A DNA stretch of 44,904 nt from Candidatus Poribacteria bacterium (lineage in GTDB: Bacteria; Poribacteria; WGA-4E; WGA-3G): the NCBI GenBank assembly GCA_022822275.1, contig JAJEBZ010000241.1, positions 1-44,904 of the forward strand, written 5' to 3'. The notes below the pieces were generated by a model, which was not told the DNA's origin, made no database searches, and worked only from the letters and a program-made list of their open reading frames with translations. The position numbers and the translations under genes are program-made. Positions 42,830-44,904 of the stretch are shown piece by piece. Each line of letters begins with the position of its first letter. Positions within the stretch are counted from its first letter, which is position 1.

Positions 42830-43441
42830 TTAATCTTGCGAAAACCCACCAAAAGCAGTCTCAAACCGTTGTCGCAGAATGTCGGGGCTTGTGTGCATAT
42901 AGATAAGCGTTGCATCTAAACTGGTGTGTCCTAATGCGATCCTCACAGATTCCAGATCGTGTGTGGCTCTATAGAGTTCAGTGCCGAAGGTATGTCGCAG
43001 GTCGTGTGGTGTAAACCTGAGTCCGATGTTTACGGAGGCTGCTTCCATGATACGTTGAAAGTCTCGGGGTGCGAGTCTATTTTTTGTGCGAAGAGTACAA
43101 AATAAGGGACTTTCTAATTCACTTTTCTCATTGCGTTCAATCTTCCATTGTAAGAAGTCGTGAAGTGCGTCTCGTACATCGTTGACGAGTGGTATTCTTC
43201 TGGCGACCTTATTTTTTGCGATTTCTGCTCGGACTTCTAATGTGGTTACGATGTTCCCGAATTTCATGACATCTCCGATATTCATACCGCATGCTTCAGC
43301 ATTGCGAAGCCCGGTTCGGAGGCAGAAGAGTACGAGTGTTCTATCGCGTTCTCTATTTTTGAGTGCGTCTAAAATGATTCTCTGTTGAATTTCGTCGAGG
43401 ACTCTGGGTTGTTGTGTTTTTCTTCTTCTTGAATTTGGCAT
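42830..43441 (-). CDS. Short tyrosine recombinase (integrase family), catalytic domain only
   Basis: 203-aa site-specific recombinase. All catalytic positions are visible: Arg46 in TGLRNAEA, a Lys in the beta-hairpin region (KNKVARR, 76-78), HDLR (His146, Arg149), GHTS (His172) and the nucleophile Tyr181 in LIYMHTS. The usual N-terminal SAM-like core-binding domain (about 80-100 residues) is missing: only about 13 basic residues (MPNSRRRKTQQPR) precede the catalytic domain. GGAG before the ATG suggests this short start is real rather than a truncation. It is flanked by two 11-bp-armed inverted repeats. No other phage or integron gene is seen nearby. Confidence 0.85.
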   Translation of the reverse strand: MPNSRRRKTQQPRVLDEIQQRIILDALKNRERDRTLVLFCLRTGLRNAEACGMNIGDVMKFGNIVTTLEVRAEIAKNKVARRIPLVNDVRDALHDFLQWKIERNEKSELESPLFCTLRTKNRLAPRDFQRIMEAASVNIGLRFTPHDLRHTFGTELYRATHDLESVRIALGHTSLDATLIYMHTSPDILRQRFETAFGGFSQD

Positions 43442-43503: not shown

Positions 43504-43539
43504 TTTAATGACGTTTTGCACGTACAATACGTCATTAAA
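43504..43539. promoter_or_regulatory. 11-bp inverted repeat upstream of the recombinase gene
   Basis: TTTAATGACGT (43504-43514) and ACGTCATTAAA (43529-43539) are exact complements around a 14-nt spacer that itself contains CGTACAATACG. It may be an operator for the recombinase or its recombination site. Confidence 0.5.
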
Positions 43540-43868
43540 TGCTCGTACAGTTACACTTCCTATCATGTTATTTCCACTTTCCTTCTCCTCCAACCTTTAA
43601 ACCCAACCCAAAATTTTCTACAACCCTGACTCGACGAAAAATGTTGCATTTGTATTCGAGATGGTGTATCCTAATTAATAATCTTTATTCAATTCTTTAA
43701 TATTCTATTTGACCAACCCTAATTAAAAATGTGACCGTTTTGCAACTGGTATTTTCATGATAAATAAATTTCAGCATGAGATTCTTTATCTGCTTTCAAT
43801 TTATAAGTTTTTGATATTTTCACACAAAAGATTCGTTCTTCCTGGACAATTAACGACAAGGACGATAT

Positions 43869-44014
43869 TTGAGATCGTATCTCAATACGAAGTTCGTTAT
43901 TGATATACGTTCTCAATATGACGATTTCGCACCTTTTGAGATTGTATCTCAAAAAAGAATCTGTATTTGAGAACGCATCTCAATAAACAGTTTGTTTTTG
44001 AGAATTATTCTCAA
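43869..44014. promoter_or_regulatory. Array of five 17-bp palindromic operators (TTGAGA-N5-TCTCAA)
   Basis: Sites begin at 43869, 43900, 43936, 43967 and 43998: TTGAGATCGTATCTCAA, TTGATATACGTTCTCAA, TTGAGATTGTATCTCAA, TTGAGAACGCATCTCAA, TTGAGAATTATTCTCAA. Start-to-start distances are 31, 36, 31 and 31 bp; 31 bp is close to three helical turns, so neighbouring sites face the same side. The spacers differ and are only 14-19 bp. The last site is a perfect 7-1-7 inverted repeat, a geometry shared with Fur-family boxes. The array ends 71 bp before the BMP-family gene. Between the recombinase promoter and the array (43540-43868) I see no gene. Confidence 0.75.
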
Positions 44015-44085
44015 ATATAGCTTTATCACTGTTTTGGCAAAATTCATAACAAAAAATCCAAAAACAAAAGCCGGAGTACTTCCTG

Positions 44086-44904
44086 ATGAAAAAATATTTG
44101 CTGTTTCTAACAATACTCACAATGAGCCTGGCATTTATTGATAACGTTACCGCAACAGTTAAAGTCGGCCTCATTCACAACGTGCGCGGCCGCGGCGATC
44201 TCTCTTTTTCTGACGCTGCATACAATGGAGCAAAAAAAGCAAAAGAGAAATGGAATATAAAACTAACAGAAATAAATCCCGCACAAAATGCGGAATACGA
44301 ACTGGCAATGCGAAGACTGGCAAAACTCAAATATGACCTTATCATCGGCGTAGGTTTCGTATTCAAAGAACCGATGAACCGAGTCGCTGCCGATTACCCA
44401 AATGTGAACTTTGCACTAATTGATGATGAAGCCGATCCGCCTAATGTTGCATCGCTTATTTATAAAGCACACGAGGGCACTTTCCTCGCCGGTGTCATCG
44501 CAGCACTAAAAACAGAATCAAAAAAAGTTGGATTCGTCGGTGGCATGAAAGTTCCGCTCGTGGAGGCTTTTGAAATCGGTTTTGCAGCGGGTATAAAACA
44601 TGCTAACCCAGATGTTGAACTTCTCGTCAACTATGTCGGGGTTACCCCACAAGCATTTGATAATTCCGCAAAGGGAAAAGAACTTGCACTCGCTCTATAT
44701 AATAAGGGCGTAGATGTGATCATTGCAGCTGCTGGTGCAAGTGGGTTAGGTGTACTTGAAGCAGCAAAACAAACAAAAAAATATATCATCTGGGTGGACT
44801 CAAACGGAAATCATCTAATACCCGGACAAGTTCTTACCAGAATTAATAAAGGTGTAGAATTGTCTGTATATCAAATGATTGAAAAAGTTGTTGATGGCAC
44901 TTTC
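44086..44904 (+). CDS. BMP/PnrA-family substrate-binding protein, cut by the window end
   Basis: The first 273 residues of a periplasmic binding protein of the BMP family (PnrA, TmpC, BmpA), which bind nucleosides for ABC import. A signal peptide (MKKYLLFLTILTMSLAF..) ends near DNVTA-TVKVGLI; no Cys follows, so it is not a lipoprotein as many relatives are. Family blocks: SDAAYNGAKKAKEKW, YDLIIGVGFVF, FALIDDEADPPNVASLIYKAHEGTFLAGVIAAL, KVGFVGGMKVPLVEAFEIGFAAG, GVDVIIAAAGASGLGVLEAAKQ and IWVDSNGNHLIPGQVLTR. About 60-80 C-terminal residues are missing. CGGAG lies 9 nt before the ATG. The five-palindrome array upstream implies strong regulation. ABC permease and ATPase genes would be expected beyond the window. 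Confidence 0.85.
   Translation, partial: MKKYLLFLTILTMSLAFIDNVTATVKVGLIHNVRGRGDLSFSDAAYNGAKKAKEKWNIKLTEINPAQNAEYELAMRRLAKLKYDLIIGVGFVFKEPMNRVAADYPNVNFALIDDEADPPNVASLIYKAHEGTFLAGVIAALKTESKKVGFVGGMKVPLVEAFEIGFAAGIKHANPDVELLVNYVGVTPQAFDNSAKGKELALALYNKGVDVIIAAAGASGLGVLEAAKQTKKYIIWVDSNGNHLIPGQVLTRINKGVELSVYQMIEKVVDGTF

What the first reader, a model, noticed from the sequence alone, without database searches (positions are those of the whole stretch)
43869..44086. Five phased palindromic operators before a BMP-type transporter gene
Seen: five 17-bp sites of the form TTGAGA-N5-TCTCAA (site 2 is TTGATA) at 31, 36, 31 and 31 bp. Three of the four steps equal about three helical turns; the 36-bp step shifts two sites to another face, dividing the array into pairs 1-2 and triplet 3-4-5. 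The geometry points to cooperative binding or filament/looping repression of the downstream gene. The regulator is unknown; the 7-1-7 form of site 5 recalls Fur-family boxes.
Basis: partly seen in the sequence, partly recalled or inferred. Interest (0 to 1): 0.75.

Follow-up and report, generated by a model that had tools for sequence, protein, structure and literature searches.

The report
Operator array upstream of bmp gene
In a Poribacteria genome, five copies of one 17-bp palindrome stand mostly three DNA turns apart before a nutrient-binding-protein gene; relatives keep the same sites in the same place, so it is probably a real docking array for a regulator not yet identified.

Summary
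Five TTGAGA-N5-TCTCAA sites (site 2: TTGATA) start at 43869, 43900, 43936, 43967 and 43998, with steps of 31, 36, 31 and 31. They include the only exact copies in the 4.5-Mb genome (a Candidatus Poribacteria MAG). The array is conserved upstream of orthologous bmp genes: two sites in G007, three in G015 and three in G006 (an insertion sequence splits the last). In these relatives every step is 31 bp. The gene-proximal site always starts 86-88 bp before the start codon, while the array's distance to an upstream promoter-like block varies. Arms stay 94% identical between sites; loops and spacers do not. Arm changes are never compensated, so the sites look like protein-binding DNA, not RNA hairpins. 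Phylum-wide, intergenic tandem pairs occur only at this gene, which suggests a one-target, probably dedicated regulator. The Fur idea is mostly rejected: only site 5 shows the full Fur core. Lrp/AsnC proteins are not detected in the genus, and no sigma-54 promoter is present. NrdR has matching geometry but a different motif. The best reading is a cooperative operator array for an unidentified dimeric regulator of the bmp operon. Next door, a 36-bp palindrome strictly co-occurs with a tyrosine recombinase gene.

The parts
43869..43885 (.). site 1, TTGAGATCGTATCTCAA
   Evidence: exact match
43900..43916 (.). site 2, TTGATATACGTTCTCAA (one mismatch)
   Evidence: the same T variant occurs in site 1 of G015 and G006
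43936..43952 (.). site 3, TTGAGATTGTATCTCAA (36 bp from site 2)
43967..43983 (.). site 4, TTGAGAACGCATCTCAA
43998..44014 (.). site 5, gene-proximal, TTGAGAATTATTCTCAA, starts at -88 from the start codon
   Evidence: position conserved at -85 to -88 in relatives
43644..43672 (+). conserved promoter-like block TTGCAT-N17-TATCCT (putative P1 of bmp), upstream of the array
   Evidence: conserved upstream of bmp in most genomes of the genus, with or without the array; inferred to be a promoter, weak match to consensus, not picked up
44086..44904 (+). bmp gene (PnrA-like substrate-binding protein), runs off the contig
   Evidence: PF02608, E 2e-59; PDB relatives Lbp and Bmp lipoproteins
42830..43441 (-). 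divergent single-domain tyrosine recombinase gene; only DNA-binding protein recognised next to the array
   Evidence: PF00589, XerA/XerC-like
43504..43539 (.). 36-bp near-palindrome just upstream of the recombinase promoter; neighbour of the array, not shown to be part of it

Best explanation
The five palindromes form a DNA operator array in the upstream region (probably the transcribed leader) of the bmp / 2-hydroxyacid dehydrogenase / HyuA-type gene cluster. A dimeric helix-turn-helix-type regulator, not yet identified, would bind each 17-bp site through the two TTGAGA half-sites. Neighbouring dimers three helical turns apart lie on one face of the DNA and bind cooperatively. Anchored at the site about 87 bp before the start codon, the complex would control bmp, most likely by blocking or wrapping the DNA downstream of promoter P1. 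Shown: the sites, their spacing, their fixed position, conservation of the arms and restriction to this one gene. Inferred: the protein, the cooperativity and the sign of regulation.
For: Array found at orthologous bmp genes: G007 two sites (-118, -87), G015 three (-148, -117, -86), G006 three (-149, -118, -87, third split by an insertion with 8-bp duplication AAAAATAA); G003 keeps one site with one mismatch at -85 and G017 a decayed one at -85. The arrays lie in two separate branches of the bmp tree. Arms are 94% identical within genomes, while the N5 loops (26%) and 14-bp spacers (42%) are near random, although the G000 and G007 intergenic regions are still 91% identical. So the array is older than that split and only the arms are kept. 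No compensatory arm changes among 14 sites, six of which vary at position 5/13. Positions 7 and 11 are A or T in all 12 distinct array sites. Tandem pairs occur in intergenic DNA only at bmp among 85 genomes of the phylum; the one other near-match lies inside a coding gene.
Against: No regulator could be named. Most genomes of the genus have the same bmp operon without the array, so it is dispensable. The promoter is inferred from conservation only. The single target leaves no regulon to confirm the motif. The 36-bp step in this genome departs from the phasing.
Confidence: 0.66

Rival explanations
1. The array is an RNA element: each palindrome forms a hairpin in the leader transcript made from P1 and acts on transcription or translation.
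For: The array lies downstream of a conserved promoter-like block. Perfect sites fold to about -4 to -5 kcal/mol and the whole leader folds better than shuffles, z = -2.5.
Against: Imperfect but conserved sites do not fold at all (0 kcal/mol). No compensatory change in 14 sites. Arm sequence, not pairing, is conserved. No Rfam family reaches its gathering score. A constant 31-bp step has no obvious role in RNA.
Confidence: 0.08
2. The sites are bound by the product of the divergent tyrosine recombinase gene, as accessory or regulatory sites.
For: Complete arrays are seen only in loci that have this recombinase next to bmp. It is the only DNA-binding protein recognised at the locus, and the motif has no other target.
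Against: G004, G005 and G008 have the recombinase next to bmp but no array. The recombinase has its own, unrelated 36-bp palindrome in all 11 genomes. No repeated palindromes lie next to its distant homologues.
Confidence: 0.1
3. The sites are Fur-family boxes and the array answers to iron, zinc or peroxide.
For: Site 5 (TTGAGAATTATTCTCAA) fits the Fur 7-1-7 core with two mismatches. A Fur-family gene exists in the genome.
Against: The other sites lack the full AATnATT core (19 of 48 inner positions match). The motif is absent near the fur gene and elsewhere in the genome, whereas Fur normally controls many genes. Fur arrays usually overlap, rather than stand 31 bp apart (own knowledge).
Confidence: 0.05
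4. The array is a neutral, slipping repeat that happens to be palindromic.
For: Copy number varies (2 to 5). G007 looks like a deletion product between sites. G008 and G012 carry 17-bp tandem repeats in the same intergenic region.
Against: Spacers and loops have decayed while arms have not. The gene-proximal site keeps its position within 3 bp in diverged lineages. There are no copies elsewhere.
Confidence: 0.08

Closest known systems
NrdR repressor and its paired NrdR boxes
   Same: Palindromic 16-bp sites in tandem with 14-17 bp spacers on one helix face, bound by a tetramer (PMC12051234); here 17-bp sites with 14-bp spacers.
   Different: The NrdR consensus (ACACWATATATWGTGT, from own knowledge) does not match these sites. 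NrdR uses pairs at ribonucleotide reductase genes, not arrays of up to five at a bmp gene.
Lrp/AsnC-family clusters of sites
   Same: Clusters of 13-17 bp imperfect palindromes with A/T-rich centres, two or three helical turns apart, bound cooperatively with DNA wrapping (PMC2995911).
   Different: No AsnC_trans_reg (PF01037) protein is detectable in any of 18 genomes of the genus, while 11 of 14 control genomes score.
NtrC-type enhancer sites (TGCACC-N5-GGTGCA, from own knowledge)
   Same: Same 6-N5-6 form and paired sites about three turns apart, from own knowledge. Sigma-54 occurs in 15 of 18 genomes of the genus.
   Different: No GG-N10-GC sigma-54 promoter core anywhere in the ten intergenic regions scanned. 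Sigma-54 was not found in this genome's own assembly.
Fur boxes (7-1-7)
   Same: Odd-centred palindrome with TGA...TCA arms; site 5 is close.
   Different: Central bases are not conserved; one target only; 31-bp steps.

Membership tests
Fur-family operator | 7-1-7 core AATnATT conserved in the sites | tested here: not met
   only site 5 has the full core; 19 of 48 inner positions match over 12 sites
Fur-family operator | Fur-family protein present in the genome | tested here: met
   G000:C56, E 3.6e-26
Fur-family operator | binding by the protein | not testable with these tools
   needs a gel shift
Lrp/AsnC operator cluster | Lrp/AsnC protein present | tested here: not met
   0 of 18 genomes with PF01037
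NrdR box pair | NrdR-box consensus in the sites | tested here: not met
   no array site within 3 mismatches
NrdR box pair | two palindromes with 14-17 bp between them | tested here: met
   14-bp spacers except one of 19 (PMC12051234)
NtrC-type enhancer | sigma-54 promoter downstream | tested here: not met
   no GG-N10-GC in ten intergenic regions
NtrC-type enhancer | sigma-54 factor encoded | tested here: inconclusive
   15 of 18 genomes of the genus, but not found in this assembly
structured RNA leader | compensatory changes in stems | tested here: not met
   0 pairs with changes on both sides, 14 sites
phased operator array (functional class) | same spacing and arms kept at orthologous genes | tested here: met
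   31-bp steps in G007, G015 and G006

The most novel reading that the evidence does not exclude
The array is the target of a regulator family with no described operator, or of the neighbouring single-domain tyrosine recombinase moonlighting as a regulator, which assembles a filament of up to five dimers in three-turn steps on a single gene.
Probability: 0.15. Interest if true: 0.6.

Novelty: new variant of a known kind. Interest (0 to 1): 0.38.

Why it matters
Nothing on transcription-factor binding sites in Poribacteria turned up in the one literature search made. This locus gives a clear, conserved motif with natural variants of 1, 2, 3 and 5 sites at one gene, a ready-made series for testing how operator number and helical phase set cooperative control. 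It also shows how an operator array shrinks and decays between related species while its arms stay under selection.

Tried and rejected
Lrp/AsnC regulator: rejected, family not detected in the genus. NrdR: geometry fits, motif does not. Sigma-54 enhancer: no promoter core. Fur: core absent in most sites. RNA hairpins: no covariation; Rfam hits far below gathering scores. Regulon search: outside bmp, counts of TTGANAWNNNWTNTCAA are close to the reversed-pattern control in five genomes, and most other exact sites lie inside predicted reading frames. Tandem near-match in G006 (C167) lies in a coding gene. Viral contigs: no tandem pair. A second promoter between the array and the gene: a TATAAT occurs in G006 and similar hexamers in G015 and G013, but it is not conserved in G000 and G007 (reading), so not claimed.

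Full report
The window is one whole contig (C281) of a 4.5-Mb genome of 320 contigs; its closest database relatives are Candidatus Poribacteria MAGs. Five 17-bp palindromes lie at 43869, 43900, 43936, 43967 and 43998. Dinucleotide shuffles of the window give 0.21 such matches on average. Shuffles of the intergenic region never give more than two palindromes with the same arm. The exact motif occurs nowhere else in the genome.

**The gene.** Downstream is a Bmp/PnrA-like substrate-binding protein (PF02608; PDB relatives). In relatives it is followed by a 2-hydroxyacid dehydrogenase and a HyuA-type, caprolactamase-alpha-like gene. No permease or ATPase gene was seen next to it. Upstream, divergently, lies a single-domain tyrosine recombinase, then ubiD, a thioredoxin-reductase-like gene and polA. 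This order is conserved, but the recombinase is missing from the bmp locus of some genomes.

**Conservation.** Orthologous bmp genes exist in all 18 genomes of the genus. Tandem sites occur upstream of four: G000 (5), G007 (2), G015 (3) and G006 (3). In G006 an insertion sequence with an 8-bp target duplication (AAAAATAA) splits the third site across two contigs; comparing the flanks shows the site at its expected 31-bp step. G003 keeps one good site and G017 a decayed one, both at -85. G013's contig breaks inside the region. The gene-proximal site starts at -88, -87, -86 and -87 in G000, G007, G015 and G006. The promoter-like TTGCAT lies at -442, -341 and -346 in G000, G007 and G015, and closer to the gene in G006. 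So the array is registered to the gene, not to that promoter.

**Selection acts on the arms.** Among all sites the arms are 94% identical within genomes. The five loop bases are 26% and the 14-bp spacers 42% identical. The G000 and G007 intergenic regions are 91% identical overall, so the divergence between spacers inside G000 is much older than the split of these two. G007's first site has the upstream flank of G000 site 1 and the spacer that follows G000 site 3; this is best read as loss of units by recombination between sites. The two array lineages are separate in the bmp tree; an ancestral array with several losses, or two gains, both fit.

**DNA rather than RNA.** Six of 14 sites are altered at the fifth arm position and none is compensated. 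Imperfect sites do not fold as RNA. Loop positions 1 and 5 are A or T in all 12 distinct array sites (probability about 1e-4 from base composition alone). This is the pattern of a dimeric protein reading two half-sites.

**One target.** Tandem pairs were searched in 85 genomes of the phylum; in intergenic DNA they occur only at bmp of these four. Single degenerate sites elsewhere are close to the reversed-pattern control. This argues against a global regulator such as Fur and for a dedicated one.

**Candidates tested.** Lrp/AsnC is the classic family with sites three turns apart (PMC2995911) but has no detectable member in the genus. NrdR has almost the same geometry (14-17 bp spacers, PMC12051234) but another motif. 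NtrC-type enhancers share the 6-N5-6 form from memory, and sigma-54 is present in most genomes of the genus, but no sigma-54 promoter core was found. A Fur-family protein exists but the sites lack its core. The regulator therefore remains unnamed.

**Mechanism.** Most likely, dimers bind cooperatively along one DNA face, anchored at about -87, and hinder transcription from P1 through the leader, or wrap the upstream DNA. Repression is preferred to activation because the array lies downstream of the only conserved promoter-like block, but this is an inference.

Noticed in passing
window 43504-43539: A 36-bp near-palindrome TTTAATGACGTTTTGCACGTACAATACGTCATTAAA sits just upstream of the -35 box of the divergent tyrosine recombinase gene. 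It is single-copy, almost invariant, and present in exactly the 11 of 60 genomes that carry a close orthologue of this recombinase. It could be a recombination site or an autoregulatory operator.
   Followed up: partly
window 42830-43441: The recombinase is only 203 aa (catalytic domain, no core-binding domain recognised). It is closest in profile to XerA/XerC and more weakly to the FimB/FimE-type DNA invertase models.
   Followed up: partly
L071 1-50 and L041 end (G006): An insertion sequence with ends CCCGTATCTACTCATTGCG has inserted into the last palindrome of the G006 array with an 8-bp duplication AAAAATAA, and breaks the assembly there.
   Followed up: partly
L122 and L131 (G012), L045 (G008): The same intergenic region carries 17-bp tandem repeats (TTTTTGAGAACCATCTA in G012, TTCTGAAACATCCTTTT in G008) upstream of the promoter-like block; the G012 unit resembles a half of the array site.
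   Followed up: no
G000 whole genome: Sigma-54 (PF04552) is found in 15 of 18 genomes of the genus but not in this assembly; possibly an assembly gap.
   Followed up: no
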